From contig NZ_JAUSWJ010000001.1 in NCBI RefSeq assembly GCF_030815145.1, positions 2,480,001 to 2,544,000 of the forward strand: 64,000 nucleotides of DNA. Reading direction: 5' to 3'. Under the pieces are notes generated by a model. The model had not been told where the DNA came from, did not search any database, and saw only the letters and a list, made by a program, of their open reading frames with translations. The translations under genes were made by a program, and so were the position numbers. Positions 7,116 through 54,732 of the stretch are shown piece by piece. The DNA is from Kaistia geumhonensis (GTDB lineage: Bacteria > Pseudomonadota > Alphaproteobacteria > Rhizobiales > Kaistiaceae). Each line of letters starts with the position of its first letter. Positions within the stretch are counted from its first letter, which is position 1.

Positions 7116-7432
7116 TCACGCGCGAAACGGCACCCCTATCGCGGCGCCGCCGGCGTTGGCGGCGCTGGCGGCATGGAGCGGCTCATCAGCAGCCGGGCGC
7201 GGACCATGCAACGCTGAGGCGTCAGGACGTCTTTCCTGCCATCGCGGCCGAAGCGTCCGGTGATCTCAGCCAGATCGGTGATTCGAGGTGTTCGTCGGCA
7301 AATCCGCGCGGAAATCGACCGCGTTTGCGTAGACGTAGCGAAGAATATCGCGCCATGGCGCAGAATCGGCGATGACTGGCGGAGGGAATGGGCCTGCCGT
7401 CGAACCTTCTCCATCTCCGTTCGACAATCGGT
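7116..7432. other. Intergenic region at the left island boundary
   Basis: About 317 bp with no gene I can support. An open minus-strand frame (7136-7414) is Arg/Pro-rich and unconvincing. Another minus-strand frame around 7270-7385 reads WRDILRYVYANAVDFRADL and then stops at about 7275; it could be the end of a broken host gene but I do not recognise it. The region contains the putative attachment-site repeat at 7377. Confidence 0.45.
7377..7387 (+). repeat. Putative attL: direct copy of tRNA-Ser 3' end
   Basis: TGGCGGAGGGA here is identical and in the same orientation to the 3' terminus (with CCA) of tRNA-Ser at 54722-54732. Beyond the 11 bp the two copies still agree at 3 of the next 5 positions (AATGGG versus GCGGG-type continuation). 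It sits 46 bp outside the leftmost island gene, exactly where a left attachment site would be for an element inserted at the tRNA 3' end. The assignment is inference from a short repeat. Confidence 0.45.
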
Positions 7433-10400
7433 CTAAGATCGGTAAGTTACCCGAGCGCCCTCATCGATGATAACGAAACGATCCTGGTGCGCCGGATCGT
7501 AGGGGTTCGGCAGCAGTGTGAACGCGGGCTCGAGCGTGAGTACACGATCCACCTTAAGGACGAAGAACTCCTCGCGCTGTCGCTTCCGACTCTTGCGGGC
7601 GATCTCTCTGGCGTGGCGGATCTCGGAGGTGCCGAGCGTGAAGCCGGTGCTGTCCTCTTCGCTGGACTTTACTTCGATATTGTAGGTGCAGCCGTCCAGC
7701 ATGAACCAGATATCGCAGCCTTTGCCCTCATCCACGTAGGAGGCATTGTCCGGAAAGGCTTTGGCACTGTAGGCGGAGACCCAGTTTGCAGGCGTGATGA
7801 TATCGGGCCCGTATTTGATCTGCAGCCATCTGAAGGCATGGATCTCGCCCGCTGCGCCGATCAGATCCTCCATGTTTCGGCGCGTCTTCGGAGGCACTCG
7901 GGAGCGCTTGGTTCTTTCTTTTGCATCGCCCGGCTTCGGCTTCTTTGCCTTTTGCGGAAGCGTGACCGCCGTCAAATCGAACCCCGCAAACGCGCGCACG
8001 CTTGCGTCGGAAACATGCGCCGAAATATGCGCGAAGAGTTGCGCTAGGCCTATATCAGAGTTTTCGATGTCACCACCACAGACCTGAACAGTGCGCTTTT
8101 TTCGCTCGGCCGCCGCCTGAAGGGCCGACAGGCGGTCTAGTGCGTCATCCATCTCGTCAGAATTGACCTGCAAAGCTATCATCAGCCCGTCGAGCGACCT
8201 GGTATCCCTAATAGCGTCGAGGATTTTCTGCGGCGTAGTCGGGGGCAGGTCCGCGCAGATGAAATCCAGCGCGCGCGCTTCGTCCCAGCGCTGAGTGAAG
8301 ACGTCGCGATCCTCGGGTCGGGGGGACAAGGTCGGCTCGCTAAGTTTCGCCTCGCGCCAGGCAGAATTCTCGTTGATGCCTGCTGCGGCATGCCATGCTG
8401 TTGCAATCAGCATGAGGCGGCTGTGCAGCCCCTCCACCAAGCGGCGGTTTACGGCTGCAACTTCCACAGGATCAGTCAGTGGAACCTGGATCGGAAAGCA
8501 AGCGATGGCGCTTCCGGGTTCGGTCGAGGTCAGGAGGTCGCTCAACGCTATACTATCAAATGCAAAACCTGCTTGTGCCAGTTCCGCGGCGATGGCGCTC
8601 GCCACTTCCGATGCAGGAAGCTCCCAATAGACCTCGGCGGTGGCCGAAGGGCACGTCATATCATCGAGGCGCTTCATCATCGTGCCGTAGGGCGGCGCTT
8701 CCGGCGTCCGGGCGGCAAGCGTGGCAATGATGCGCCTAAGAACAGGTAGCATCCGGTCGCGATGTTGCCGGAATTGCCTTTCGTGCAATGGGTTAGAAAT
8801 TGCGACTTCGCCGTGTCGAGCGCCTTCGCGGTTCCAATGAGTAAGCTCGACCTGCGGACCCAGCAGGTCGCGGACAAGGATACCAAACTGCAGCAGTTCC
8901 CTTGATGTAACGGCAGCATTCAATACTTCTTGTGCAAGCCCCTGGGATGGGAATGCCTCCTCAAGAACAGAGATAAGTTGGTCGCGCTGTTCCGATACCT
9001 CGACACGAAGTGCTAGATCTTCCCGTGAAAGAACACGCAGAAGCCTCGCCACTCGAGAAATCACCGGTCCAAGGTCGCCGCGCCAGAGCTCAAGTACCTC
9101 GTGGAAGTGATCCGGCGAAAGATCAAGAAGCCTCAGGGTACGTTCGGGTATCACATCCTCATCGTTGGGCCAGATTTCATCGAGACCGGTGCGGATCTGC
9201 ACCCGCAAGTCGGACCGACCAATCAGTTGCGACAACGCGTCAGCGACAGACTGAATGTCGGATTTCCATTCCGTATCAAGTACAAGCGTTCTCTTGCGGG
9301 CGAGCCATGCGGCCATCTGCGGCATCGGATCAGCGATCGGCTGGTCGGTTATCATTGGCACGACGGAGAGTTGGGGCACGACGGCCACTCTCGCCTCGCG
9401 GAAGGCCGCGACAAGGTCGTTGAACCCCCCCGACATTGTGCCTTGGGCGTTCTGCCCGTGAAAGGCGGCGATCGTCAGCACGAGGGGAATGACTCCATCG
9501 AGATCCCGGAACGACGGAATCTCAACCGCCTCGGCCTCTGCGAATGGCCGATTGCCAGAAAGAGCTGCCAGTTCGAAGCGCTCAGAATTCTTGACCGCAC
9601 CCCCGAAACGCGCAGAAAAGCCCTCGGCAAGACGTTGTGCGGTTTTGGGTTCGATCGCGATCACCGAGAGACCAAGTTCACGTAGGTCCGAAGCGGAGGA
9701 GCGACTACTTGGCAGATAAACCGTCCTGTCCGCTGAGGGTTTTACCAACGCCAGAACTCCATCGGGCTGCTGCACCACAACATGTGCGGGGAAACCAGCT
9801 GGTGAGGCGGGTTCAAATGCCTCCCAAGCCGCGCGCAATTGGCCGATCAAAGTGCTCGCGTTGCGGAATGCGCGGTTGTCCACGGCTTTGCCTAGGCTAT
9901 CCAGCAGCCGCACATCGTCTGATCGCGTTTCTGGATCGTATTGGGCGACCCCGAGGCGTGAGAACAATGATTTAAGCACTTCGTCCTGCTCAATCCGAAC
10001 TGCAACCTGTGCGGGTAGCGGGGAAAGGTGCTCAAAGGTCCAAATTCTGCCGTTTGTTGTGTAGCGGCTCGGGATCAACCAGCGTCCTGTGGGCTTAGTC
10101 CAGCTTCGTGTACCCTCGTGATCCCCCTCGGGGATCCACTCAAACATTGCCAAGGCCAAGAATAGAGGCGAGCCTAAAGTGATGCGCTCGTAGGTTCCTG
10201 TGTCCCGCATGAGGTCCACGCTTGGCCACCCGCTGCCCCAACGACGCGCGCTGCCCATTACGACTTCAAGGAGGGCCTGTTTCGTATCCTTGTCGAACGA
10301 TGCGCGGTTTTCGAGCCCTGGTAACCAGCGGAACGTGTCGATCTTGGATCGCCCGGATTTGTACGAACTAATCCGACCGCGCAGGTTCTGACCAAAAACG

Positions 10401-13009
10401 CTCCAAGTCTCGGCGTCGATGGGTGTTAGGGCGATTTGGTGGACCTGAAAGTGATGGTTACTAACCTGACATGTGAGGGCAGGCTCCTTTCCGCCGATCT
10501 GAATGAGTGGTAGCCCATCAGAAACGCCTGCCTTTTCAAGCACATGACGGGCGGCTTCACCGAGATCACCCCAGTCAGGGTCATCTGGGCTGCAAAGCAG
10601 CCGGGCACGCGCGGTTTGGGCGCTTCCAGTGCCGGCAAGCCGCAGGTATCGGTCCACTGCAACACCGTGTGTTTCAGGCCAACCCTTGCCAAATATGGCT
10701 TGGGATATGGGATACCATCCGCCACGGCATGGAACGGGGATCCTTGCCATGGCCTTGGTGACGCTCTCGCCATCGCCGCGCGCCTCCAACGAGGTTGCGA
10801 GGCGGAGCGCGTAGGAAAGGGCATCGCGACATAGTCCGGCATCGCTAGTCCCGCGGGCAACAGGCATGGCGGGCAGGTTCGGCGCCAAGATATCCGCAAG
10901 CACGTCTTCGCGTCGAAAGACGTTAACCAGCTTGGCATCCAGTAGGCGCTTGTGAAGGTCGGTGTTCTGTCTGCGGCCGTCGCGGACTTCGCTGACGGGT
11001 ATCTTCGAGTCGAGGATTGCTATGAATGATTGTAGCCCAGTGGGGATCTCGTCGATGCCCAACTCGTCCTGGTTGTCATCTTCCAGACTGGACTGGCGCG
11101 GTCGAAAGTAGATCGCCCGTCCAGCAACACCTCCGGAATGCAGAGCCCCGTCCGTACAGAGAAGGATATCCCTACCGCTAAGGTGAGACAGATCACCATC
11201 GAAAATGTCGCAGACATCCTGCCAGAATTGCCCCCAATCAATATCCGCCGTGCCCGCCAGCACTTTTGCAGCGGCTTCAATCGTCGTTGCCTGGTCTTCC
11301 TTTGCAGGCAAAACTCCGATATCAAAATGCTCGGAAAGGCGCTCAACGGACCGCATGCGCAGATCCAATTCCGCTACATAGGCCGGAAAGGTCGCAAGTT
11401 GGCGCATGAGGTCCGCACCCAACACCTTTGGGTTGCTCGGCAACGGCAGTGCGGACGTTTCTGATAGCGTGCGCCATCCGTGATCGCTGAGCATCCACGG
11501 CGCTTCCTTGATACTGATCCCCATATCCGCCGCTGCGCTAGACAAATGCGCTTGCCACCGTGCCTCCGACGCACGGTCGGAGGCAAGCGGCGCAAGTATG
11601 TCCAAGATGTTTGCCGCCTCCGCGACTGAACGTCCGGCCAAGTCTTCGGCAATCGCCTCTAGAGCAAGAAAGGCCACCTGTTGCAGCAGGAATTCGTTGT
11701 AGTTCCCCCCTGCCTGTGAGCCCTCTACCTCTGAATCAAAGCTGATTGTCGTGCGACTCATGTCGCCGAAGAACGGTGCGTTGATGTGAAGAGCGGCTCC
11801 AGTCTCCAACGCGGTCGGAAGGAAGATACTGAGTCTTCCGGGTGTTGGTTCACGCTCATCGCTAACGGCGAGAGAAATCTCGGCCCGTTCCAGTTTCGGC
11901 CAGTGGCCGGGCAAAGTACGAATAGATTCCTGAACCGCCTCCGGCATGTCGAATACCGGAAGCGTGCGCCGCCAGACGGAGTAACGCTGTGAAGTTTCGC
12001 CCGAACTGATCGAAATTTTGCCAAATCCCCTTGGCCCACTCGCTTTCCTAAGAACGCTTCGAAAGAACGATCTGGAGCTACTGGGAGTGGTGATTGTCAG
12101 CGACTTCAGGTTATCGAGAAACAACATGGAATCGGTTTCAATCTCTGTGAGCTTGTGTTCCGCGAGGATGGCAGCCGTAGAGGAAAGCAGCGGCAAGGCT
12201 AGGACGGATGCAAATCCGCGGGCTTCAAGGTCCTCGACCACGGGGTTGCGCGCCGATTGCGGCCAAGGCAAGAGATAGGGCGAAAGGTAATCGATCTCGT
12301 CACGCAACCAGTCCGATGTCGGATTTTTGCCTTGCGCCTGTCGGCGTCGTGCGCCGGTACGCAAACGCTCACAAAGGCTGGGATCTTCATCGACGACCTC
12401 GGCAAACCATTCCTGTTCGACCGAAAATGGTCGATCCTCAAGGATAGCAATTATGGGGTCGTAGATTGACTTGGTGAATTTCGGCGAGAAGCCGAAGCAA
12501 TAGCCATCGAATTCTGGACTGTCTTCCCGTCGCCGAGACCAGATGCGGGGCGCTTGGCTAATCTCAAGTACGCTGCGAAAGCCAATGCCCTTGTTGCCGA
12601 CAGCGGTAGCGGGATCCTTGTCGCTCTGGCCAAGGCGGGAAACGCTTTCAAAATTACTATGCGAGAATGGTGCACCGTCATTGGCGACGTATAGAGTTCC
12701 AAACCCGCTATCCATTTCCAGTCGCATCTCGATCCGGCATTGCGAGGCTTTGCGGTCTTCGGCTCGACTGACGGCGTCATAGGCGTTCTGGATCAATTCG
12801 ATGGCAAAACGGCCGTGGTACTGATGCCTAACTTGCTCGGTCAGGCTATGGATGGAACGGTAGTCCGTAACCCCTTCTGCGAGTTGGTAGAGGAAGCTGC
12901 GTATCTTACCGCCAGTCTCAGAGCGGATCACCGCCTCGAACGAGTTGGGGCTCGTGGGTATACGGTTGTCGAGCTGCGGATGTTCGTGGAGCATTAGAGA
13001 ACTCTGCAT
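7433..13009 (-). CDS. Giant NO VEIN-like protein: sacsin-type GHKL ATPase plus DUF3883 nuclease-like domain
   Basis: 1858 residues. The N-terminus is a sacsin/Hsp90-like GHKL ATPase: N-box ELIQNAYDA (71-79), DGAPF (111-115) and glycine lid GNKGIGF (138-144). A very long middle region has no motif I recognise. The C-terminus (about 1720-1858) is a DUF3883-type domain with CDIWF and NIEVKSS; D1766, E1779 and K1781 make an apparently intact PD-(D/E)XK-like D...E-x-K set. Plant NO VEIN has the same two-domain plan. The ATG at 13009 directly follows the helicase stop (TGAATG), so the two are coupled. I infer an ATP-gated nuclease acting with the helicase, probably in defence. The sequence is more A/T-rich than the host genes. 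Confidence 0.85.
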   Translation of the reverse strand: MQSSLMLHEHPQLDNRIPTSPNSFEAVIRSETGGKIRSFLYQLAEGVTDYRSIHSLTEQVRHQYHGRFAIELIQNAYDAVSRAEDRKASQCRIEMRLEMDSGFGTLYVANDGAPFSHSNFESVSRLGQSDKDPATAVGNKGIGFRSVLEISQAPRIWSRRREDSPEFDGYCFGFSPKFTKSIYDPIIAILEDRPFSVEQEWFAEVVDEDPSLCERLRTGARRRQAQGKNPTSDWLRDEIDYLSPYLLPWPQSARNPVVEDLEARGFASVLALPLLSSTAAILAEHKLTEIETDSMLFLDNLKSLTITTPSSSRSFFRSVLRKASGPRGFGKISISSGETSQRYSVWRRTLPVFDMPEAVQESIRTLPGHWPKLERAEISLAVSDEREPTPGRLSIFLPTALETGAALHINAPFFGDMSRTTISFDSEVEGSQAGGNYNEFLLQQVAFLALEAIAEDLAGRSVAEAANILDILAPLASDRASEARWQAHLSSAAADMGISIKEAPWMLSDHGWRTLSETSALPLPSNPKVLGADLMRQLATFPAYVAELDLRMRSVERLSEHFDIGVLPAKEDQATTIEAAAKVLAGTADIDWGQFWQDVCDIFDGDLSHLSGRDILLCTDGALHSGGVAGRAIYFRPRQSSLEDDNQDELGIDEIPTGLQSFIAILDSKIPVSEVRDGRRQNTDLHKRLLDAKLVNVFRREDVLADILAPNLPAMPVARGTSDAGLCRDALSYALRLATSLEARGDGESVTKAMARIPVPCRGGWYPISQAIFGKGWPETHGVAVDRYLRLAGTGSAQTARARLLCSPDDPDWGDLGEAARHVLEKAGVSDGLPLIQIGGKEPALTCQVSNHHFQVHQIALTPIDAETWSVFGQNLRGRISSYKSGRSKIDTFRWLPGLENRASFDKDTKQALLEVVMGSARRWGSGWPSVDLMRDTGTYERITLGSPLFLALAMFEWIPEGDHEGTRSWTKPTGRWLIPSRYTTNGRIWTFEHLSPLPAQVAVRIEQDEVLKSLFSRLGVAQYDPETRSDDVRLLDSLGKAVDNRAFRNASTLIGQLRAAWEAFEPASPAGFPAHVVVQQPDGVLALVKPSADRTVYLPSSRSSASDLRELGLSVIAIEPKTAQRLAEGFSARFGGAVKNSERFELAALSGNRPFAEAEAVEIPSFRDLDGVIPLVLTIAAFHGQNAQGTMSGGFNDLVAAFREARVAVVPQLSVVPMITDQPIADPMPQMAAWLARKRTLVLDTEWKSDIQSVADALSQLIGRSDLRVQIRTGLDEIWPNDEDVIPERTLRLLDLSPDHFHEVLELWRGDLGPVISRVARLLRVLSREDLALRVEVSEQRDQLISVLEEAFPSQGLAQEVLNAAVTSRELLQFGILVRDLLGPQVELTHWNREGARHGEVAISNPLHERQFRQHRDRMLPVLRRIIATLAARTPEAPPYGTMMKRLDDMTCPSATAEVYWELPASEVASAIAAELAQAGFAFDSIALSDLLTSTEPGSAIACFPIQVPLTDPVEVAAVNRRLVEGLHSRLMLIATAWHAAAGINENSAWREAKLSEPTLSPRPEDRDVFTQRWDEARALDFICADLPPTTPQKILDAIRDTRSLDGLMIALQVNSDEMDDALDRLSALQAAAERKKRTVQVCGGDIENSDIGLAQLFAHISAHVSDASVRAFAGFDLTAVTLPQKAKKPKPGDAKERTKRSRVPPKTRRNMEDLIGAAGEIHAFRWLQIKYGPDIITPANWVSAYSAKAFPDNASYVDEGKGCDIWFMLDGCTYNIEVKSSEEDSTGFTLGTSEIRHAREIARKSRKRQREEFFVLKVDRVLTLEPAFTLLPNPYDPAHQDRFVIIDEGARVTYRS

Positions 13010-15352
13010 TCAGGACGTCGGCGTTTCCAAGGTGGCAGGTCGCGTGGAAGATGTGGCGCCGATGGTTCCTGTGGGGGGCATGCAAGATTTATTCAACGCA
13101 CAGAGCGTGTTCACAAGCCGCATCTGCTCGACTGTCTCGCACTTCGCCTCGCGCAGACGCGGCGCGCCGAAGACCAGTGCAAGACCCTTGGCGCGCGAGA
13201 CCGCCACGTTGATGCGGTTGAGCGAGAACAGGAACTCCATCCCGCGCGGTGTTTCCTCGGCCGAGGACGCGGTCATCGAGACAAGGCAGACGGGCGCCTC
13301 CTGTCCCTGGAACTTGTCCACCGTGCCCACACGAATGGCCTCCGGCAGCGCCTCGCGCAGGGCGTTGACCTGTGCGTTGTAGGGGGCGACCACGATGATG
13401 TCGCTGGCCCGCATCGGGCGGGTCGCGCCGTCCCTGTCAGTCCATGTGCCTTTCAGCAGGTCGGCTACGGCTGCGCGGATCACTTCGACCTCTTCGGCCG
13501 CGACCTGCGCGTTGCCCTCGTGCGGCACGGGCACCCAGAAGGCCCCCACCTCGGGGAAGCGCGTGCCACGGACAGCCTGATGCGCGGTGTCGGGATGGCT
13601 GGTCAGCCGCCCTTCATAGACTTGGTCCGAGATGAAACGGCAGATCTCGGGGTGCATCCGCCGCGAGACGGGCAGGAAGATGCCCCGGTCCGGGGGCACG
13701 GTCGCATGGTCGCCCAGCATCCAATCGAGGCACGACAGGTTCGCAGGCTCCGGATGCGCGCCCTGGATCACCTGCGGCAACTGGCGCGGGTCGCCGACAG
13801 GCACGATGTTGCGTGCGGCCCGGCCCATGGCCACCATGTTGGCCAGTCCGACTTGCCCTGCCTCATCGACGAAGAGCCAGTCGAAGGCCTGCACATTCTC
13901 GTCGCGAGAGAAGAACCATGCCGTCGCGCCGACAACATGTTGCCCACCCGCCGCTTCGTCATTGTTGGTGGTGCGGCGCACCGGGCAATCGTCGGGGTAG
14001 CCGTCATCATCGCCGCTGGTCTTGTGAACCAGATCCAGCGTGATCGGCAGATCCGCGTCCTCCAGTGCATAAAGACAGCCCATAAGCACATTGCGGATCG
14101 CTTCGTGGCTGTTCGATGTCACGCCGACCCGCGCGCCCTTGCGCACCAGCGACAAGATCGCGCGGGCGGTGACAAAGGTCTTGCCGGTGCCGGGCGGTTC
14201 CTGAATGGGCAGCACGGTTTCGTCCATCGCATCCACAGCCGCGATCGTGCCTGACACTGCGTCAGCCGTTGGCAATAGCGGTCCGGTCGTCAGGCGGGGC
14301 GCCGCGCGTGCCAGCAGATCATCAACCGCCCGATAGGCGCGCGGCCCACATTGGTCAGCGATGACGTCACGCAAAGCGCCAGGGATAGGTTTGGGATCAA
14401 TCGGCCAATCGGGATGCAGGTTGATCCGGTCGCCGAGAAGGCGGTCCTTGCTCGGTCCGGCTTTCACTGTAACCTCCCGCGCCTTGCGATCCAGCCTTCC
14501 AAGGTTGCCGATCAGTCCGTCGATAGCAGAGCGCAGGATGCCACCGTCTGACGCGAGGGCGACGAAGGCATTGGCAAGGGCCTCGATGGTCGGGGCTACG
14601 GCGACCGCAATCCGGTTGCGCAGGCCGTCGAAGACCAGAGACACCGTGCCGAGCGCCAACTGCGTGCGGCGCAAGGCTTCCAGCGCATCGCTGTCCAGAA
14701 CCGCTCCGAGGTCGGATGCCTGATCACCCAGACGGGCCATCTCTGCTCCGCCGTTGCGCAGGAGTGGCAGGAGGCGGGTCGCGTCCGAGGCCATGGCCTC
14801 GAGATAGAAGGTCATCTCCTGCTGGCTGAGCCCAGCGCGTTCAAGCGTGTCGACGTAAAGCTGCAAAGCCTCGGGGCCGGAAAGGCGCGCGAACTGGTCG
14901 GCAGTGACTCCGACCCGGGGCGCGACGTTCTCGAAGAAATCCGCCATCGGCCCGCCGCCGGTCTGCAGGAAATCCCCGACCCGGTCGTTCACGTCCTTCA
15001 GGATGTCGGCCAGCTTCTCCTGTTCGATGCCGACCGTCCGCGCCCCGGCCGACCAGCGTTGCAGGGCTTGCGGAGCGGCATTGGCGACCTGCGCGAACTG
15101 CCGGATCTGCGCGGCACTCTCGGCGGTGGAACGCACAATCAGCCCGAGGGACGCTGTGGCCGCCGCAGCTGCCGCCCCGAGGGCAATGCCCGCCCGGCGC
15201 GCAAAGGCCGCTAGCCGGGTGTTCGCCAGTTCAATCTCGCGCGACAGGCGGCCGAGGCCCTTCGCCCCGGCCTCGCCAACACCCTCCAGTTCGGCGCGCA
15301 CCTGGCGGCCGCCCACGGCGGCGAGCCGGACGGAGACGCGTTTCTCGGCCAT
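13010..15352 (-). CDS. Chimeric ORF: tape measure N-terminus fused in frame to an SF1 helicase
   Basis: One open frame of 780 codons with two unrelated halves. Residues 1 to about 286 are the start of a phage tail tape measure protein (Ala-rich helices, hydrophobic segment near 55-73), in the expected place after the tail chaperone. From about 290 it is an SF1 UPF1/DNA2-type helicase: Walker A EPPGTGKT (385-392), Walker B FVDEAG (494-499), motif III GDPRQLPQ (520-527), motif V VDKFQGQE, motif VI NVAVSRAK. The helicase matches the C-terminal half of TM0106-type RecB-nuclease/helicase proteins and lacks the nuclease half. An internal GTG at 14467 with GGGAGG five bases upstream could start a 485-residue helicase alone. 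It is coupled to the giant ATPase gene by TGAATG. Confidence 0.85.
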   Translation of the reverse strand: MAEKRVSVRLAAVGGRQVRAELEGVGEAGAKGLGRLSREIELANTRLAAFARRAGIALGAAAAAATASLGLIVRSTAESAAQIRQFAQVANAAPQALQRWSAGARTVGIEQEKLADILKDVNDRVGDFLQTGGGPMADFFENVAPRVGVTADQFARLSGPEALQLYVDTLERAGLSQQEMTFYLEAMASDATRLLPLLRNGGAEMARLGDQASDLGAVLDSDALEALRRTQLALGTVSLVFDGLRNRIAVAVAPTIEALANAFVALASDGGILRSAIDGLIGNLGRLDRKAREVTVKAGPSKDRLLGDRINLHPDWPIDPKPIPGALRDVIADQCGPRAYRAVDDLLARAAPRLTTGPLLPTADAVSGTIAAVDAMDETVLPIQEPPGTGKTFVTARAILSLVRKGARVGVTSNSHEAIRNVLMGCLYALEDADLPITLDLVHKTSGDDDGYPDDCPVRRTTNNDEAAGGQHVVGATAWFFSRDENVQAFDWLFVDEAGQVGLANMVAMGRAARNIVPVGDPRQLPQVIQGAHPEPANLSCLDWMLGDHATVPPDRGIFLPVSRRMHPEICRFISDQVYEGRLTSHPDTAHQAVRGTRFPEVGAFWVPVPHEGNAQVAAEEVEVIRAAVADLLKGTWTDRDGATRPMRASDIIVVAPYNAQVNALREALPEAIRVGTVDKFQGQEAPVCLVSMTASSAEETPRGMEFLFSLNRINVAVSRAKGLALVFGAPRLREAKCETVEQMRLVNTLCALNKSCMPPTGTIGATSSTRPATLETPTS
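14467..14500 (-). other. Tape measure/helicase junction with internal start
   Basis: Recombination junction in the chimeric ORF, placed by loss of tape measure-like sequence after IDGLIGNLGR and onset of helicase-like sequence. The minus strand here carries GGGAGG, then TTACA, then GTG AAA GCC, a good translation start in the helicase frame. The exact breakpoint cannot be fixed to better than a few tens of bases without homologues. Confidence 0.55.
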
Positions 15353-16056: not shown

Positions 16057-16995
16057 TCAATAGGTGGCGACGGTGTTGACGAGGACGGCGGTGCACATCC
16101 GGGCGGGGCTCGTGGCCTTCGCCGCCTGCCAGTCGAAGGTGGCCTGGATGCCCTGCGGGCCCGGTATCTCGATGCGGGGCCGCGGAAGGTAGACGGCGTG
16201 CGCGGTGAAGGTAAAGCTGGCGTTGGCCCCGAGGCTCCACGCGAAGACTAGCTCGCAAGGCGTGCCGTCGATGGCCTGCGTGATCAGCGCTGTGTCCGCG
16301 AAACGGACCTCGACGCGGCCGGTCAGCGCGGCCATGCCGGGGTCGGCGCCCTCGATGCGCCCGTCCGAGCGGATGGTCTCGATCCGGTCGAGGCCGTTCG
16401 AATAGGTCACCTCGACCGAGATGACGTTGCCGAGGGGCGAGCCGTTGCGGGTGATCGCCCCGTTGAAATGCCCGAAGCGCTGCAATGCCAACGCGGTGGG
16501 CGTGCCAGCCGCCGTGGCGGCCGGGACGTTCTCCCCCTGCGCCACCAGCCGCGCCGTGGCGGTTAGCAGGCCTGACCGCGCCATCTGCCAGGAAAGCTGA
16601 TCGCAGACACAGCCGGTGTACATTGCATAGCGCGGCACCTCGGGCATTGCCGTCTCAATGGCCATCGACGGCAACGTCCAGTTGCCGGACTGGAAGGTGT
16701 GGGTCTTGGGCGTCGTTCCGGAGGTCGTCGGCTGACCGAAGGCGGCCTTCAGCCAGAGGCCGAAGTTCTCGACATCGATCGGCACGACGACGTCGCCATC
16801 GGCCGTGACCGCGTCCTTGATCGGGGCCAGCGGGTCGCGCCCCTGTCCCAGGAGTTCCGAGGCGATCAGCGGCTGCTCGGAGCCAAGCGTGGTCCTAGCG
16901 AAGGGCACCGTGCGGTAGCCCGAGGCGGGCGCGGTGCTATAGACGGACTCGAACGCAAGCGCCATCTGCGCCCGCGCCCCATGGGCTCGTGCCAT
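16057..16995 (-). CDS. Phage tail tube (major tail) protein
   Basis: 312 residues beginning MARAHGARAQ. The N-terminal part (ALAFESVYSTAP, then TLGSEQPLIASELLGQGRDP) and the later immunoglobulin-like beta-rich section resemble long siphophage tail tube proteins. It follows the tail terminator gene and precedes the tail chaperone, the normal order for tube subunits. It would polymerise into the non-contractile tail tube; here it is probably not productive because the tape measure is broken. Confidence 0.8.
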   Translation of the reverse strand: MARAHGARAQMALAFESVYSTAPASGYRTVPFARTTLGSEQPLIASELLGQGRDPLAPIKDAVTADGDVVVPIDVENFGLWLKAAFGQPTTSGTTPKTHTFQSGNWTLPSMAIETAMPEVPRYAMYTGCVCDQLSWQMARSGLLTATARLVAQGENVPAATAAGTPTALALQRFGHFNGAITRNGSPLGNVISVEVTYSNGLDRIETIRSDGRIEGADPGMAALTGRVEVRFADTALITQAIDGTPCELVFAWSLGANASFTFTAHAVYLPRPRIEIPGPQGIQATFDWQAAKATSPARMCTAVLVNTVATY

Positions 16996-17019
16996 CGTAG
17001 TCTCCTTTGGTGAAGGGGG

Positions 17020-17439
17020 TCAGGCCAGCGGATCGGCCGTGGAATAGTGCAGGATGACCGGGATCACCGCTGCCTTCAGGCTGGCGGCACCTTCGACGGC
17101 CAGATCGACCGGGCGCGGCGCTTCCGCCTCGACCCAGTCGCAGAGCCCGCCCAGAGTGCGGTCCGCTACAACCGCCGCGCCGATGCTGGCGCAGAGCGAG
17201 TCGAAGGCGGCGTCACGGGTGGCGCCCTGCACGACCGCCTCGATCTCGGACCGGTGCTGGTAGTGATAGCGCAGTGGCGACAGCGTCACTTCCGGATCGC
17301 CCGGCTCGCCATCGCGCAGGATCAGGAGACCTGCGGTTGGCACGCGTTCCGGCAGGACGTCACCGCGCAGAGCCGTGGCGGGCAACGCCGAGAGCCGCGC
17401 GTGCAGCGCGGTGAGGACGGTTTCGCGTGGGGTGGGCAT
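17020..17439 (-). CDS. Phage tail terminator / tail completion-like protein
   Basis: 139 residues, MPTPRETVLTALHARL. Length, a short N-terminal helix and a following beta-rich domain (RSEIEAVVQGATRDAAFDSLC) fit small tail terminator (gpU-like) proteins that cap the tail tube. Position directly before the tail tube gene supports this. Direct family recognition is moderate. Confidence 0.65.
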   Translation of the reverse strand: MPTPRETVLTALHARLSALPATALRGDVLPERVPTAGLLILRDGEPGDPEVTLSPLRYHYQHRSEIEAVVQGATRDAAFDSLCASIGAAVVADRTLGGLCDWVEAEAPRPVDLAVEGAASLKAAVIPVILHYSTADPLA

Positions 17440-17515
17440 GTTAAAACACCGTTTGTTACTTGCGATCGCGTCCCTCGGGTCTAGAGTTCAAACCAAGTAG
17501 CTTGTGGAGGCTAGG

Positions 17516-18094
17516 TTGAGCGATTCAAATTTCGTTGCACACTTCACAAAGGGTGCAAAAGACACGCCCTTTGACAATTTGGTCAGCATCCTGAATGCCA
17601 AATCAATAAGAGCTGGGGAACTTCCTTGGACCAAGAACCCGGCTGTCTGTTTCACCGAGTGCCCATGGTCTAGCTTGCTGAAACATACCGGACACTATTC
17701 CCCATATGGCATCGGTTTTACCAAGTCTCATGTTTTTGCCGCAGGCGGAGGTCCGGCATATTATGTGCGCGCCGATCATTGGTCGAAACAACAGTGGGAC
17801 AACCACGTTAAGACGTTCGTGACGCCGTTCTGGCCTGAATACCGGCCACAGACGGAGGAATTCAGAAAGCCACTCAGCGGAAAAACCATCGACTACTCTC
17901 ATGAGCGAGAGTGGCGGGTGCCCCACGATTTCCGTTTCGAACACCAGCAGGTCCAGTTTGTCGTACTGCCTGACTACGAAGCGATGGCGAAGTTCCCGAA
18001 GGACCTAAAGGATGCTATTGGCAGGGAGAAGTTCATCTTAGTCGAGGTGTATCGCCACATCGAGCGTCTGTGGCCAACGCATGTCGTTGATTGA
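17516..18094 (+). CDS. AbiGi-family abortive infection protein (cargo gene)
   Basis: About 192 residues. The N-terminal pattern (FVAHFTKGA, LVSILNAKSIRAGELP, VCFTECPW, GIGFTKSHVF) matches the AbiGi family, annotated as the antitoxin half of the AbiG abortive infection system. I choose TTG 17516 because GGAGG lies 5 bases upstream; a GTG at 17504 is the alternative and would contain that site. It is the only rightward gene in the leftward tail operon, more A/T-rich than its neighbours, with its own transcription unit implied: a typical prophage cargo (moron) gene. No AbiGii partner is adjacent. Confidence 0.75.
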   Translation: MSDSNFVAHFTKGAKDTPFDNLVSILNAKSIRAGELPWTKNPAVCFTECPWSSLLKHTGHYSPYGIGFTKSHVFAAGGGPAYYVRADHWSKQQWDNHVKTFVTPFWPEYRPQTEEFRKPLSGKTIDYSHEREWRVPHDFRFEHQQVQFVVLPDYEAMAKFPKDLKDAIGREKFILVEVYRHIERLWPTHVVD

Positions 18095-18102
18095 ACGCCC
18101 CG

Positions 18103-18741
18103 TTACGCCCGAAGTTCGAACCACTTCGCCACGATCAGCCCCGGCACGGCATCGTGTGCCCGCTCTGCATCCCGCGCCAAGTCCAGCCGTTTCGGCAGCC
18201 TGACCTGCGGCACCAGAAGGAAGATCGGCGCGGTCACGAGGCCACGGCCGGTCTTTGACCGTGACGCGACGGCGCGGCCCTTCGTGTTCAGCCGCCCCTC
18301 CGCCACCAGCAGGCTCGGACCTCGGCGGCGATAGATGAAGCGCAGGCGCAGGCCGGTGCGACGCTCCCATTCGCCCGGAGTGATCCGACCGCCACGCAGG
18401 GACTTGCCTGCAGCGGGCGTGGGGATCGCCAGCCAGAAGCCGTTCTTCGAGCGGATCAGCGGGCCGGTGTCGTGCGCGCCGACGATGACCGGGGCGTTGG
18501 ACCAGACCACGGTTGCCGCGTTCAGGCTGGGCGTGGCCTTGGGGAACTGCTCCGACCGGATGGTGCGGGCGAGCCGGAGCCCGAGGCCCGCGCCGGTGAT
18601 CTGCAGCCGCCACGCCGCCTTCAGCCCTGTCCCGGCCTCGCGGATCGCGGCCGAGACAGCCCTCTCGCCCGCCGCAACCTCGGCCGCCATCATCGCGACG
18701 ATGTCGGGATCGATGTCGAGCTTCAGCCGCATCGCGGTCAC
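18103..18741 (-). CDS. Phage DUF6441-type protein (neck/tail connector region)
   Basis: 212 residues, MTAMRLKLDID. The central segment (AWRLQITGAGLG, TPAAGKSLRGGRITPGEWERRTG, LRFIYRRRGPSLLVAEG) matches the DUF6441 family found in alphaproteobacterial prophages between head-tail joining and tail genes. Its likely role is as a neck or minor tail component comparable in position to HK97 gp10. Its stop is 8 bp from the AbiGi gene stop, so the cargo gene converges on it. Confidence 0.72.
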   Translation of the reverse strand: MTAMRLKLDIDPDIVAMMAAEVAAGERAVSAAIREAGTGLKAAWRLQITGAGLGLRLARTIRSEQFPKATPSLNAATVVWSNAPVIVGAHDTGPLIRSKNGFWLAIPTPAAGKSLRGGRITPGEWERRTGLRLRFIYRRRGPSLLVAEGRLNTKGRAVASRSKTGRGLVTAPIFLLVPQVRLPKRLDLARDAERAHDAVPGLIVAKWFELRA

Positions 18742-19049
18742 GCTGGGCGCAGGTCGACGGTCCAGACCAGCCGCTCGCTGTCGCGGACGGGCTCGCCCTG
18801 GATGAGGAAGGCGTCGCCGTCGATCTCGACGCGGTCGCCGGGGCGCGGGGCTGGCACCTCGGTGACACGTAGGTCGATCCGGGTGGATTCGGACCAGAGC
18901 CTCGCATCGCCGAAGTCGGTGATCGCATCGGCACGTCGTGCGACCACGCGCACGAGGACTGGCGCGCCGCCGTCGGCGATGTAGACCGCATCCCGCCCGA
19001 TGTTCGGATCGGCGAAGAGCGCGCCCATGGCGGCGGCGAAGGCGCTCAT
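18738..19049 (-). CDS. Phage head-tail joining protein
   Basis: 103 residues from 19049 (MSAFAAAMGALFADPNIG). Small beta-rich protein typical of head-tail joining (gpFII/HK97 gp9-like) subunits, with VEIDGDAFLIQGEPVRD near the C-terminus. The start overlaps the stop of the DUF2190 gene (TGATG) and its own stop overlaps the start of the DUF6441 gene. The open frame upstream of 19049 is out of family. Confidence 0.75.
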   Translation of the reverse strand: MSAFAAAMGALFADPNIGRDAVYIADGGAPVLVRVVARRADAITDFGDARLWSESTRIDLRVTEVPAPRPGDRVEIDGDAFLIQGEPVRDSERLVWTVDLRPA

Positions 19050-19384
19050 CAGAACGACCCGTTCAGCCGCACCCGGCCGACTACATCGCCCGCGCCGCCT
19101 GCAACCACCTCGGTCGCCACGCCGATCAGCGTGTTCGAGGTGGTGACCTTGGTGGTCTGGCGGGCGGTGTTGTCCCAGTAGATGCGGTCGCCGACGGCCC
19201 ACGCCTGGCTTCCGAGCTTCTTCAGCTCGTAGACGCCGACGAGGGCGGCTTCGACGGTTTCGCCGAGGGCAGCGGTGCCTGAGGCCACGCCGAAGATGGA
19301 GCCGACGAGCAGGCCATCGCCCGATGCGACGGCATAGGGCGCGGTCAAGGTGATGGTGTTGCCGGGCTGGACGTAGGTTTTCAT
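19049..19384 (-). CDS. DUF2190 family capsid decoration protein
   Basis: 111 residues. The sequence MKTYVQPGNTITLTAP, then SGDGLLVGSIFGVA, VYELKK and GDRIYWDN, follows the DUF2190 pattern of small trimeric-type capsid cement proteins. It lies immediately downstream of the capsid gene, as usual. TGATG overlap with the next gene. Confidence 0.87.
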   Translation of the reverse strand: MKTYVQPGNTITLTAPYAVASGDGLLVGSIFGVASGTAALGETVEAALVGVYELKKLGSQAWAVGDRIYWDNTARQTTKVTTSNTLIGVATEVVAGGAGDVVGRVRLNGSF

Positions 19385-19464
19385 GGGGAAGATCCTTGTG
19401 GAAAGACGAAGGGCGGCCCGTCAGGACCGCCCGCGTGTCTGGGTTCAGCATGTCGGGGTGCGGG

Positions 19465-21498
19465 TTACGCGCCCGGGTTCTTGTAGAGGCCGCGCCAGTC
19501 GATGGCCTTGGCGCCGAAGTCGAGGCGGCACTTGATCTCGACCCCGTCGACGTCGAAGCCGTTGCGGGTCTCGATGTAGGCGCCCTGCTGGCCCTCGAGA
19601 TAGGCGTACTCGATGGTGTCGATCTGGTTGGGGCTCGCTGCCAGATACCAGGAGGCGGCGCTTGCGGCATCGAGGCGCGGCTCGCTGATCGGGGACAGCG
19701 TCCGGATCGACTGCGGCACCACCTTGGCGCTGTCGGCGGGGACGAGGTTCTGGGCCACCAGCTGCTCGGCCTTCAGTTCGAGGGCCGCCGGGACGATCAG
19801 GAAGGCGGGGCGGATGTTCAGCACCGTCTTCTTGTCGAGCCCGGTCTGCAGCGCCATCGCCGCCCGTGCCGCACCGACGCTTGCCACGTCCAGCGCCGCA
19901 CCGGTGCCCGCGAGGTTCTTGTGCGTGGTGTGGAAGAGTGCGTTGCCGTCGGCCATCGCCGGGTTCGCGGTGATGATACCCCAGACCACGTCCGACTCCA
20001 GCTGGGCGATGGAGTTGCCGTACATCGCCGGGATCCGGGTGAAGGCGTCGAGGTCGTCGTTGATCAGCACCTGCCGGGTGATCGCGACGACCCGGCCATA
20101 GGTCTTCACGCGGTAGCTTTCCTTGCTCTCGCCGAGGGTGCCGCGTTTGAACTCGCCGCTTTCGCCCACCTCCAGAAGCTGGGGTGCCTCGCCCAGCTGG
20201 ACGCGGTGCATGGATTTGAAGTCGGTCGCCAGCACCTGGCGACAGAAGAGCGCGAAGGTGCGGGGATAGGCGTCATAGGCCTGCCGCAGGGTCTTGTTGG
20301 TGACAGCCGAGAGGATCTCGGGGAAGTCCGAGGTCGAGTGCAGCGCGCGGGTCGCCACCTCGTCGCGCGAGAGGCCACGCGTGTTGACCCCCGCATTGCC
20401 GAGGCTCTCGCGGGCCAGTTCCAGCAGCGTCATGCCGCGGTACTGGCGGGCGGCGTCTTCCAGCGGGAAGAGCGTCGGGCTGTAGCGGTGCAAGAGCGCG
20501 TTCGCCACGGCATCGCGGCGGGTGATGCGCTCGTCCCGGCCGCCGAGGGGCACGGAGACATGCGGGAAGGTCCGGGTCTCATCCGACTTCGCGGCGACCT
20601 GGTCGAGGATCAGGCGGCGGGACTCGTCGACGCTGATCCCGCGTTTCACCAGATCTTCGGCGAAGCTGCGCCCGAGGTTCAGACGGCCGGTCAGATCGTA
20701 GATCGTGGACACCCGGTCGCGCTCGGCGTCGCGGGCACGGGTGGCGATGGCCTCTGTGTCGGGTGCCGGAGTGGGGTCCGGCGTGCGCGCGGCGGCCTGT
20801 TCGGGCTGCGCCGGGGCCGCAACGGGCTGCTGGCGGGTCTCATGGCTGGCGGGAACATCCCCGGCCACGGTAGTGGTGCTCTCAGGCATGGATGCCTCCT
20901 TTTGCATGCGGGTGTCGACGATCTCGACGGGATAGCTGGCCTGATCCGAGGCGCGCACCTGCGCGCGGGGATCGGCGGGAACGGTCACGAAGCTGACCTC
21001 GAGTGGAGTCCAGCGTTCGACGATGCGTTGCTCGACCTCGCCCTTGGCGGCGGGCTCGACCACCTTCACCCGCTCGATGGAATAGCCGACCGAGACGTTG
21101 CGGATGATGCCGTCGCTGATCAGGCCGAACATGCGGTCGGCGGCCTGGTCCAGCCCCTCGCGGGGGAAACGGATGGTGGCCTTGCCTTCCTTGCCCTCGA
21201 TCCAGGCGCGTTCGACGACGCCCACTTGCGAATGCGAGGACCAGACCGAATGGCTGTCGAGCGCCGGAGCCCCCGCGTTGAGGCGCGTCAGGTCCACCGC
21301 CCTGTCGCTGACCTCGAGGATCTCGTCGAAGGGCACGGAGGTGTCCCAGCCGGTCCAGCGCCGCCGCCGAACGGCTGCGCCGGTGGTGAAGACGACGTCG
21401 ACCGAGCGCGCCTCGGTATTGACGGTCGCGGGCAGGATGGGCGCGCGCCGCAGCTGCATCGGCAGGGCGACCGGGGCCGCCATGATCGTGTCGGGCAT
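19465..21498 (-). CDS. Prohead protease / major capsid protein fusion
   Basis: 677 residues from 21498 (MPDTIMAAPVAL). Residues 1 to about 190 are a prohead protease domain (LDSHSVWSSHSQVG with a likely catalytic His, then SDGIIRNVSVGYSI with a likely catalytic Ser). A Pro/Ala/Thr-rich linker around 205-265 follows, then an HK97-type scaffold and major capsid domain ending near 677. Fused protease-capsid genes are a known variant in such prophages; here the protease must excise itself. It lies between portal and DUF2190 genes. The frame upstream of 21498 is not credible. Confidence 0.88.
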   Translation of the reverse strand: MPDTIMAAPVALPMQLRRAPILPATVNTEARSVDVVFTTGAAVRRRRWTGWDTSVPFDEILEVSDRAVDLTRLNAGAPALDSHSVWSSHSQVGVVERAWIEGKEGKATIRFPREGLDQAADRMFGLISDGIIRNVSVGYSIERVKVVEPAAKGEVEQRIVERWTPLEVSFVTVPADPRAQVRASDQASYPVEIVDTRMQKEASMPESTTTVAGDVPASHETRQQPVAAPAQPEQAAARTPDPTPAPDTEAIATRARDAERDRVSTIYDLTGRLNLGRSFAEDLVKRGISVDESRRLILDQVAAKSDETRTFPHVSVPLGGRDERITRRDAVANALLHRYSPTLFPLEDAARQYRGMTLLELARESLGNAGVNTRGLSRDEVATRALHSTSDFPEILSAVTNKTLRQAYDAYPRTFALFCRQVLATDFKSMHRVQLGEAPQLLEVGESGEFKRGTLGESKESYRVKTYGRVVAITRQVLINDDLDAFTRIPAMYGNSIAQLESDVVWGIITANPAMADGNALFHTTHKNLAGTGAALDVASVGAARAAMALQTGLDKKTVLNIRPAFLIVPAALELKAEQLVAQNLVPADSAKVVPQSIRTLSPISEPRLDAASAASWYLAASPNQIDTIEYAYLEGQQGAYIETRNGFDVDGVEIKCRLDFGAKAIDWRGLYKNPGA

Positions 21499-21502
21499 GG
21501 CC

Positions 21503-23014
21503 CTATTCCTTCTCTGGTTCAGATGCGGGAGCGGCCGGTTCGCTGGCCGGATCGCCCGCCTGCGCGCTGCCGGTTTTCGTGACGCGGCGCGGATCGCTGT
21601 CGAGCACGAGACCGAGGCCATCGAGCTTGGCGTTGGTTGCGGCGATTTCCGCGAGGACCGCGTCCGGGTTATGACCCTGCCGCGCAATGGCCTGCGCCAG
21701 CGTCATCGTGCCGGTCCGGATCGCCAGCAGGTCGGCCATCGCGTCCTTGTAGGGATCGACGGCGTCGAACTTCGGTGGCGACCATTCCACCGGCACGTCA
21801 GGGATCGGGATCTGGCCCGCTGCCCATGCGGCCTCGGTGAACCAGCGCCAGACCGGTGCACAGAGCATCGGGATGAAGAGCTGCCATTGCACGGCGTCGA
21901 TCATCCGGCGGAACTCGACCAGCCCCGCCCGGATCGAGGAATAGTTGACTTGGGACAAATCCCCGGTCAGCAGCTCGTAAGGCACCCGGAACCCGGCCGA
22001 GATCGTGTGCAGGCTCGCCCGCTTGTATTCGCCATAGCCGCCAGTGGCGGCGGGCTGGTTGAACCGAATGTCCTTGCCGCCGCGGGCATAGGCGATCAGG
22101 CCCGGCTCGAACTGCTCGACCCGGTTGCCGTCGGCGTCGACCACGGACGGCGCGATGCCCTGCTGCGCCTCATCGTCGCCGAAGACGATGGCGGTGACGC
22201 AGGCCTCGGTCTTCTTGCGGACCAGTTCCGCCACCTCGTAATCGTCGAGATCGCGCAAGCTGCGGATCACCGGCGCGCCCCAGGGAACGCCGCGCGCCTG
22301 CGTGCGCTGCTTCTCGTAGATGTGCGCGATCTCTGACGCGGGGACCGGGCGAGACCCAAGCCCGCCTTGCAGCGCGCCCCAGGCATCGCCGGGGTGTGCC
22401 GTGTGCAGCCAATAGGCCCGGCGCTTTCCGACAGCGTCGAATTCGATCCCCTGCACCAGCCGAGCACCGCCAAGGACGCCGGATTTGGTGGCATCGAGGA
22501 AGTCCGCCTCCAGCACTTGCAGTTGCAGCGGCACGGGCAGACCGTCGCTGGCGCGCCGCAGCCTGCGGCGTACCAGCACCTCGCCGGCTTCGATCATTTC
22601 GCGGCAGATCAGCGTCTGCAGGCCGTAGAAGTCGAGCTGGCCATCGGCATCGCAATCCGCCGTCCAGCGGGTGAACAGCGCATCGACCTTCCGGTCCAGC
22701 TTGTCGTCGCCGCTGGCGGCGCGCGGCATGATGCCCGCGCCGATGATGTTGTTCACCAGCACCGCCACGGCTTTCGCCGCATGCGGGTTGTTGCGCACCA
22801 GATCGCGCATGCGGTCGCGCAAGAGCGCCCCGGCCACGCCGATCTCGGTGTCGGCCGAGGATCCCGGCGCGCGCCAGCCGTCCGTCCGCCGCCCTTTGGA
22901 CGCACCATCATAGCCGCGCGTCAGGGTCTCGAAGGCTTGCCGCGCCAGGACGCGACGGGCGGCGGCCCGAGGGGCCACAGTCGCGATAGCGTGATCGAAC
23001 CAGTTCGCGGGCAT
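21503..23014 (-). CDS. Phage portal protein (lambda GpB family)
   Basis: 503 residues, MPANWFDHAIATVAPRAAAR. Typical portal features are VRNNPHAAKAVAVLVNNIIG near residue 75, FDAVGKRRAYWLH, and the conserved RAGLVEFRRMIDAVQWQLF segment in the C-terminal half. It forms the dodecameric DNA gate at the capsid vertex. It overlaps the head-tail connector gene stop by one base and is followed after 4 bp by the protease-capsid fusion. Confidence 0.92.
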   Translation of the reverse strand: MPANWFDHAIATVAPRAAARRVLARQAFETLTRGYDGASKGRRTDGWRAPGSSADTEIGVAGALLRDRMRDLVRNNPHAAKAVAVLVNNIIGAGIMPRAASGDDKLDRKVDALFTRWTADCDADGQLDFYGLQTLICREMIEAGEVLVRRRLRRASDGLPVPLQLQVLEADFLDATKSGVLGGARLVQGIEFDAVGKRRAYWLHTAHPGDAWGALQGGLGSRPVPASEIAHIYEKQRTQARGVPWGAPVIRSLRDLDDYEVAELVRKKTEACVTAIVFGDDEAQQGIAPSVVDADGNRVEQFEPGLIAYARGGKDIRFNQPAATGGYGEYKRASLHTISAGFRVPYELLTGDLSQVNYSSIRAGLVEFRRMIDAVQWQLFIPMLCAPVWRWFTEAAWAAGQIPIPDVPVEWSPPKFDAVDPYKDAMADLLAIRTGTMTLAQAIARQGHNPDAVLAEIAATNAKLDGLGLVLDSDPRRVTKTGSAQAGDPASEPAAPASEPEKE

Positions 23015-23223
23015 CAGCGATCCCCACGGCTGAAGCCGGCCAACCCGGCGACCGGGAGCGACCGCGCGGTCCCAGCGATGGCCCGCTCGATGGTGCGGAT
23101 GCGCGTCAGCAGATCCTCGGCCGAGCCGTAGTCGACCGATTTTCCATCATAGCTGACCCGCGTCGTGCCGCTGGCATAGGCCCGGCGCAGGGCTGCAAGT
23201 TCGGTTTCCGTCCAGTCGGTCAT
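23014..23223 (-). CDS. gpW-like phage head-tail joining protein
   Basis: 69 residues, MTDWTETELAALRRAYASG. Short helix-turn-strand protein with VSYDGKSVDYGSAEDLLTRI, the gpW-family pattern. The start at 23223 overlaps the terminase stop as TGATG; an in-frame ATG nine bases further up is possible. Lies between terminase and portal, as gpW does in lambda-like phages. Confidence 0.85.
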   Translation of the reverse strand: MTDWTETELAALRRAYASGTTRVSYDGKSVDYGSAEDLLTRIRTIERAIAGTARSLPVAGLAGFSRGDR

Positions 23224-25722: not shown

Positions 25723-25844
25723 GCCCTGCATCGACAGCTCCGATTATCATTCAAGATCATGCGCTTATCTCGTTGATAAGCATCGCGGGCAGAGCGAACG
25801 TCCTTTCAGAAGAACGATGCAACTCGACCCAAGGAGCCACCACG

Positions 25845-49575: not shown

Positions 49576-49607
49576 GCGCCTGCGTTAGGTTAAGAGGAGG
49601 CCGCCAT

Positions 49608-54721: not shown

Positions 54722-54732
54722 TGGCGGAGGGA
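54722..54732 (+). repeat. Putative attR within tRNA-Ser 3' end
   Basis: TGGCGGAGGGA on the plus strand, identical to 7377-7387 in direct orientation. It includes the tRNA CCA and acceptor strand, so integration leaves the tRNA intact, as with many tRNA-targeting islands. Short, hence moderate confidence. Confidence 0.45.

What the first reader, a model, noticed from the sequence alone, without database searches (positions are those of the whole stretch)
7433..14467. Candidate defence system: SF1 helicase coupled to a giant NO VEIN-like ATPase with an intact nuclease motif
Seen: a coupled pair (TGAATG) of an SF1 helicase and an 1858-residue protein. The latter has a sacsin-type GHKL ATPase at one end (N-box 71-79, lid 138-144) and a DUF3883 domain with D1766, E1779 and K1781 at the other. 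Known: sacsin-like ATPase plus DUF3883 is the architecture of plant NO VEIN, and DUF3883 occurs near defence helicases. Inference: an ATP-gated nuclease-helicase anti-phage system carried by a mobile island. I do not know a named defence system with exactly this pair.
Basis: partly seen in the sequence, partly recalled or inferred. Interest (0 to 1): 0.78.

Follow-up and report, generated by a model that had tools for sequence, protein, structure and literature searches.

The report
Tiamat defence gene, broken helicase partner
The giant protein is an intact member of an already named bacterial anti-phage family (Tiamat), and the "helicase" next to it is the cut-off tail of a larger DNA-degrading enzyme fused by a deletion to a viral tail gene; intact relatives show that this enzyme is a shared core onto which different defence proteins are swapped.

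Summary
The 1858-aa protein (7433-13009, minus) is real, intact and already named: PADLOC TmtA (Tiamat), E 4.9e-244 over its full length. D1766, E1779 and K1781 are invariant in an alignment of 11 relatives, and the predicted C-terminal fold matches PD-(D/E)XK nucleases. The "SF1 helicase" is not an intact gene. ORF 13010-15352 is a chimera: residues 1-~285 are the N-terminus of a phage tail tape-measure protein, and the rest is residues ~619-1090 of a ~1090-aa TM0106-family (COG2251) Dna2-like nuclease-helicase. It has lost the Fe-S RecB-type nuclease, the DnaQ-like exonuclease, the stalk and most of domain 1B, and Walker A carries G->E. The pairing is nevertheless old: an 88%-identical TmtA in another genome also follows a TM0106 start and a WYL gene. 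In intact relatives a WYL-TM0106 core sits upstream of swappable ATPase-nuclease modules (TmtA/sacsin, McrBC, SbcCD-like). DNA homology stops 13-40 bp before the helicase stop codon even between cores 84-92% identical with different partners. Best reading: a Tiamat effector that can act alone, stranded by deletion from a modular defence operon.

The parts
7433..13009 (-). TmtA (Tiamat) homologue, 1858 aa, intact
   Evidence: PADLOC TmtA PDLC03971 E 4.9e-244, residues 19-1857 of the 1782-position profile; Pfam SACS
12533..12823 (-). sacsin-type GHKL ATPase match (residues 63-159), including N-box 71-79 (12773-12799) and lid 138-144 (12578-12598)
   Evidence: Pfam PF25794 63-159; P_loop_sacsin 67-157; motifs read in the sequence
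7436..7891 (-). C-terminal DUF3883/NOV_C-like PD-(D/E)XK nuclease domain (residues 1707-1858); D1766 (7712-7714), E1779 (7673-7675), K1781 (7667-7669)
   Evidence: three of four invariant columns among 11 homologues; AF2 model pTM 0.72; Foldseek and VIA-align matches to Hjc, RecU, HincII, SPARDA nuclease, DpnI
13010..14493 (-). remnant of a TM0106/COG2251-family Dna2-like nuclease-helicase: C-terminal SF1 motor only, equivalent to residues ~619-1090 of the Haematobacter protein; Walker A G->E at ORF residue 385 (14198-14200)
   Evidence: 91% aa to NZ_CP035515 TM0106 protein; start of homology 14493; G717E, otherwise invariant in 29 homologues
14493..14498 (-). fusion junction, in frame, between tape-measure gene and helicase gene
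   Evidence: DNA homology to P. aminovorans tape-measure gene ends at 14498; homology to the helicase gene begins at 14493
14499..15352 (-). 5' part of a phage tail tape-measure gene; the 3' part is missing
   Evidence: 91% aa to P. aminovorans, 53-54% to Paracoccus phages; the rest of the gene not found in the genome except one 33% match
16057..25731 (-). prophage structural genes: tail tube 16057-16995, tail terminator 17020-17439, head-tail attachment 18738-19670, head/protease 19465-21687, portal 21503-23014, large terminase 23223-25232, small terminase 25171-25731
   Evidence: Pfam and PHROGs
7125..7433 (.). left boundary of the insertion: host synteny with same-genus genome G013 ends at 7125; similarity to the 88%-identical TmtA locus L002 ends at 7377

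Best explanation
The feature is the surviving effector gene of a modular defence operon. The ancestral order was WYL regulator (divergent) - TM0106 nuclease-helicase - TmtA. A deletion joined the operon in frame to a prophage tape-measure gene and removed WYL and the first ~618 codons of the nuclease-helicase. TmtA is left intact. Most likely mechanism: TmtA is an ATP-gated endonuclease. A GHKL (Hsp90/MutL-like) clamp senses a phage product or phage DNA state, and ATP-driven closure licenses the C-terminal PD-(D/E)XK domain (D1766, E1779, K1781) to cut nucleic acid. In intact relatives, a Dna2-like enzyme (Fe-S RecB-type nuclease plus DnaQ-like exonuclease plus 1B/1A/2A helicase) would unwind and degrade the cut DNA; in this genome that step is lost. 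Shown: TmtA identity, motifs, nuclease fold, chimera junction, loss of domains, Walker A change, ancestral linkage, partner exchange. Inferred: ATP gating, target, DNA cleavage, that TmtA here is still active, that the fusion protein is inactive.
For: TmtA full-length match. D/E/K invariant in 11 sequences; PD-(D/E)XK fold. Chimera: tblastn splits the ORF at residues 287-291 between tape-measure and TM0106 proteins, and DNA homology switches within 14493-14498. Full-length relatives carry an invariant D112, D132xK134, QxxxY set, a four-Cys set (28 of 29 sequences) and DnaQ-like D315xE317, D398, D473, all upstream of the cut; Pfam RNase_H_2. A full-length relative (L079) folds like Dna2 (5ean, Foldseek E 5e-26) with the helicase core from residue ~529, while the cut maps to ~623. 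Walker A G717E and L850P. Ancestral pair: L002 carries a WYL C-terminus, the first ~57 codons of a TM0106 gene and then TmtA 1121-1857 at 88%. Pair or module swaps in relatives; >=7 partner changes on the helicase tree; homology past the helicase stop in 1 of 86 different-partner pairs against 27 of 34 same-partner pairs. TmtA without TM0106 elsewhere (L035, L037, L038).
Against: No activity data. Pfam NOV_C does not score the window protein itself. The fusion ORF is open and in frame, the helicase remnant has dN/dS 0.09 against L071 and no clearly longer branch in the tree (0.083 against 0.063), so the truncation is either recent or the fusion is still used. L002 is from a MAG and its deletion could be an assembly error.
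Confidence: 0.72

Rival explanations
1. One reading: a working two-gene nuclease-helicase defence system in this genome, with the helicase translated from an internal start (GTG 14467) or as the fusion protein.
For: TGA|ATG coupling and open frames; SF1 domains 1A/2A with most motifs kept; dN/dS 0.09 against L071.
Against: Nuclease, exonuclease, stalk and most of 1B are missing; the first Walker A glycine, invariant in 29 relatives, is E; WYL and the operon promoter region are gone; expression would depend on a phage late gene.
Confidence: 0.13
2. Tiamat proper: TmtA is a stand-alone system and the helicase neighbour is incidental in this family.
For: PADLOC and the literature treat Tiamat as its own system; relatives L035, L037 and L038 have no TM0106 neighbour; TmtA is intact here although its neighbour is broken.
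Against: TmtA/sacsin-type genes follow the TM0106 gene directly in L071, L072, L080, L081, L082, L103 and ancestrally in L002, which is not expected by chance for a gene found full-length in about 1 in 130 genomes of the class sample (3 of 385).
Confidence: 0.35
3. The fusion is selected: the prophage uses a tape-measure-helicase protein, or the prophage carries the defence gene as cargo expressed with its late genes.
For: In-frame fusion at 14493-14498; prophage head genes upstream are open.
Against: The rest of the tape-measure gene is absent from the genome apart from one 33% match, so the tail cannot be built; no second example of the junction was found.
Confidence: 0.05
4. The junction is an assembly artefact.
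For: A sharp junction between two unrelated genes; a similar deletion in L002.
Against: The genome is one closed 4.59-Mb contig; neither missing half is elsewhere in it.
Confidence: 0.05

Closest known systems
Tiamat (TmtA)
   Same: Full-length profile match, GHKL/sacsin ATPase N-terminus, nuclease-like C-terminus
   Different: Here and in relatives it sits behind a TM0106 nuclease-helicase and a WYL regulator, which are not part of the PADLOC Tiamat proteins; here that partner is broken
TM0106 / COG2251 predicted RecB-family nuclease
   Same: The helicase remnant is 91% identical to the C-terminal half of an annotated TM0106 protein; PMC3985635 describes COG2251 as DUF83 nuclease plus RNase-H-like plus AAA domains
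   Different: Both nuclease domains are deleted in the window
Plant NO VEIN
   Same: Sacsin-like ATPase plus C-terminal NOV_C/DUF3883. PMC12409356 reports that Tiamat models hit plant genome contigs in plant metagenomes, which this homology would explain (inference)
   Different: Bacterial, beside a nuclease-helicase
Mokosh (MkoA, MkoC)
   Same: SF1 UPF1/Dna2-like helicase core, E 4.6e-44
   Different: Match limited to the helicase core; no kinase or PLD partner next to it in this window
CoCoNuT type II/III (McrBC plus UPF1-like CnuH, PMC11090510)
   Same: An SF1 helicase paired with an McrBC-type partner, as in some TM0106 relatives
   Different: No TmtA there; the main text does not mention RecB or RNase H domains
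MORC/paraMORC R-M systems (PMC2292703)
   Same: GHKL ATPase plus nuclease plus helicase
   Different: SFII helicases there; SF1 Dna2-like here
Hma (PADLOC HmaA, HmaB)
   Same: A TmtA-like GHKL protein lies between HmaA and HmaB, behind a WYL gene, elsewhere in this same genome (L040)
   Different: SNF2 helicase and methylase instead of TM0106

Membership tests
Tiamat (TmtA) | full-length match to a TmtA profile | tested here: met
   E 4.9e-244, residues 19-1857
Tiamat (TmtA) | GHKL ATPase motifs intact | tested here: met
   SACS 63-159; N-box 71-79, lid 138-144 (sequence)
Tiamat (TmtA) | anti-phage activity | not testable with these tools
   needs phage challenge
DUF3883 / NOV_C | Pfam NOV_C match | tested here: inconclusive
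   no hit at E<=0.1 in the window protein; aligned homologues hit (L072 E 1.4e-5 above cut-off; L071 E 0.0054 below it)
PD-(D/E)XK nuclease | D...E-x-K in a PD-(D/E)XK fold | tested here: met
   D1766, E1779, K1781 invariant; best matches are Hjc, RecU, HincII, SPARDA nuclease and DpnI (Foldseek prob up to 1.00, best E 4.5e-3; VIA Z up to 8.2)
TM0106/COG2251 nuclease-helicase | N-terminal Fe-S RecB-type nuclease | tested here: not met
   deleted; the homology starts at residue ~619 of 1090; absent elsewhere in the genome
TM0106/COG2251 nuclease-helicase | RNase_H_2/DnaQ-like exonuclease | tested here: not met
   deleted (PF13482 at 312-485 of L071)
TM0106/COG2251 nuclease-helicase | complete SF1 core with intact Walker A | tested here: not met
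   stalk and most of 1B missing; G->E in Walker A
Mokosh | MkoA with kinase partner, or MkoC with PLD domain | tested here: not met
   helicase core only; neighbours are TmtA and phage genes
McrBC / type IV restriction | McrB plus McrC | tested here: not met
   present in relatives, not adjacent to the window helicase

The most novel reading that the evidence does not exclude
WYL plus a TM0106 Dna2-like nuclease-helicase is the shared core of one alphaproteobacterial defence family whose downstream ATPase-nuclease module (TmtA/sacsin-NOV, McrBC, SbcCD-like) is exchanged as a cassette exactly at the gene boundary, so that Tiamat, type IV restriction and SbcCD-like systems are alternative front ends of one degradation machine.
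Probability: 0.5. Interest if true: 0.68.

Novelty: new variant of a known kind. Interest (0 to 1): 0.5.

Why it matters
It turns 'an unnamed giant ATPase with a helicase' into something testable. A named but mechanistically unexplained system (Tiamat) carries a PD-(D/E)XK nuclease and recurrently uses a Dna2-like nuclease-helicase that other defence modules use as well. If the core really serves several front ends, knocking out one gene in operons with different front ends asks directly whether the core is a common degradation step. It also gives a caution: defence 'pairs' read from raw sequence can include broken genes.

Tried and rejected
Genome-contig scan with TmtA gave only one relative, L002. 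Viral contigs gave none; phages gave one short ATPase-only match. 150 close relatives: no other TmtA of this type, only one 33% N-terminal match. A search for the missing helicase half and tape-measure half in the same genome, to test an inversion rather than a deletion: helicase half absent, tape-measure half only a 33% match elsewhere. Mokosh considered and rejected (helicase core only). Empty-site reconstruction: G013 matches the left flank to 7125 on one contig, and the tRNA-Ser and the right flank from 57.5 kb on another, so the two flanks are not adjacent there and no clean empty site was obtained; no att sites defined. The 72-bp match of 7321-7392 in G005 and G002 was not explained. Literature searches for TM0106 and for RecB-like nuclease with McrBC and WYL found no description of the modular core; the library is incomplete. 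DefenseFinder models were not available.

Full report
1. What is there. The minus-strand ORF 7433-13009 encodes 1858 residues. PADLOC scores it as TmtA (Tiamat) with E 4.9e-244 from residue 19 to 1857. In an alignment of C-termini from 11 related proteins the four invariant columns include D1766, E1779 and K1781. The AlphaFold2 model of residues 1640-1858 is moderate overall (pLDDT 70, pTM 0.72) but good over 1707-1858. Its best structural matches are PD-(D/E)XK nucleases: Hjc, RecU and HincII by Foldseek (prob up to 1.00, E 4.5e-3), and the SPARDA nuclease, Hjc and DpnI by VIA-align (Z up to 8.2). These scores are in a range where single matches are weak, but the consistency across the list and the invariant D/E/K make the assignment firm. 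An earlier paper already calls DUF3883 a 'novel REase domain' (PMC3710099).

2. The helicase is a chimera. The upstream ORF is not 14467-13010 but 15352-13010. tblastn splits it cleanly: residues 1-291 are 91% identical to a Paracoccus aminovorans protein and similar to Paracoccus phage tape-measure proteins, and residues 287-754 are 91% identical to the C-terminal half of a 1090-residue 'TM0106 family RecB-like putative nuclease' of Haematobacter massiliensis. At DNA level tape-measure homology ends at 14498 and helicase homology begins at 14493. Upstream lie tail tube, tail terminator, head, portal and terminase genes of a prophage. The missing helicase half is nowhere else in the closed genome, and of the missing tape-measure half only a 33% match remains.

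3. What was lost. In 29 full-length relatives the first ~618 residues carry an invariant RecB-type set (D112, D132-x-K134, Q146xxxY150), four cysteines in 28 of 29 sequences (C21, C211, C214, C220), as in Dna2/AddB-type Fe-S nucleases (my reading), and an exonuclease set (D315-x-E317, D398, D473) under Pfam RNase_H_2. The AF2 model of the relative in a same-genus genome (pLDDT 85) aligns with Dna2 (5ean, Foldseek E 5e-26) and, from residue ~529 on, with the Ighmbp2 and UPF1 helicase cores. The window fusion starts at the equivalent of residue ~623, inside the 1B barrel, so the stalk and most of 1B are missing too. The first Walker A glycine, invariant in all 29 relatives, is glutamate (PIQEPPGTGKT), and a near-invariant leucine (L850 in L071, motif III region) is proline. 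The remnant still shows the dN/dS of a once-functional gene (0.09 against L071), so the damage is probably recent (inference).

4. The pair is nevertheless ancestral. A Rhodobacteraceae MAG contig (L002) has an 88%-identical TmtA C-terminal part. Directly before it lie the first ~57 codons of a TM0106 gene, preceded by a 334-aa ORF and a WYL/WCX regulator; a deletion from TM0106 codon ~57 to TmtA codon ~1121 removed the middle. So this TmtA lineage sat behind a TM0106 gene with a WYL regulator, and both copies found have since been broken, in different ways. The MAG deletion might be an assembly error; the adjacency of the two ends would still be informative.

5. A modular core. In the >=70%-identity clade of TM0106 proteins the gene downstream is a TmtA/sacsin protein in L071, L072, L081, L082 and the window, a 2455-aa double-sacsin protein in L080, McrB plus McrC in L073, L076, L079, L083, L096, L098 and L099, an exonuclease plus SMC-like ATPase (SbcCD-like) in L077, L100, L101 and L102, and none recognised in L074, L075 and L097. 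A WYL gene stands divergently upstream in most. On a tree of the helicase parts the partner type changes at least seven times. L096 (McrBC) and L082 (TmtA) are sisters: their DNA is 92% identical through WYL and helicase and stops 13-28 bp before the helicase stop codon. Over all pairs, DNA homology continues past the helicase stop in 1 of 86 pairs with different partners and in 27 of 34 pairs with the same partner. The window and L071 have helicases 91% identical but TmtA proteins only ~26% identical over ~300 residues, so exchange also occurs within the TmtA type. Whether the parts work together is not shown.

6. Mechanism. For TmtA I favour an ATP-gated nuclease by analogy with other GHKL proteins (established knowledge of MutL and Hsp90, not tested here). 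In intact operons the TM0106 protein would unwind and degrade the ends TmtA makes; McrBC and SbcCD-like partners are also ATPase-nuclease modules, so the same division of labour would hold (inference). TmtA relatives without TM0106 neighbours (L035, L037, L038) argue that TmtA can act alone, so the window copy may still protect.

7. Known or new. The large protein is a member of a named family. The pair in this window is a degraded instance. The modular WYL-TM0106 core is not in PADLOC as a system and was not found in the papers searched, but the library lacks most subscription papers. Related precedents are MORC and paraMORC R-M systems with SFII helicases (PMC2292703), CoCoNuTs with UPF1-like CnuH (PMC11090510), and WYL regulators beside type IV enzymes (PMC9122601). 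PMC12629846 reports Tiamat and type IV restriction as the two most frequent systems in one Pseudomonas hotspot, which may be a parallel. PMC12409356 reports that Tiamat hits in plant metagenomes were on plant genomes, which NO VEIN homology would explain (inference).

Noticed in passing
window 48220-54360 (+): A likely MORC/Z1-type restriction system: C5 methylase (48220-49575), HATPase_c_3 protein (49608-51140), Z1-domain protein (51137-53383), DUF4420 PD-(D/E)XK protein (53341-54360), just left of tRNA-Ser (54722-54811); matches the layout described in PMC2292703.
   Followed up: partly
L040 3114-15277 (same genome, C1:163-175 kb): WYL, HmaA helicase, a TmtA-like sacsin ATPase (1417 aa) and HmaB methylase in a row: a second GHKL protein of TmtA type beside another helicase.
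   Followed up: partly
window 46098-47516 (+): Large serine recombinase between the prophage genes and the MORC/Z1 genes.
   Followed up: no
L036 12005-12179 (Pseudosulfitobacter plasmid): An isolated ~175-bp remnant of the 3' end of a TmtA gene (78% DNA identity to window 7404-7578), without the rest of the gene, near the T4SS genes of a conjugative plasmid; in L073 an McrBC-type version of the operon also lies next to the T4SS genes.
   Followed up: partly
L071 14962-19404: Behind TmtA in Haematobacter pOT1-5 lies a second giant sacsin-type protein (33% to the double-sacsin protein of L080).
   Followed up: no
window 7321-7392: 72 bp, 79% identical to sequences in two same-genus genomes (G005, G002), outside annotated genes; nature unknown.
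   Followed up: no
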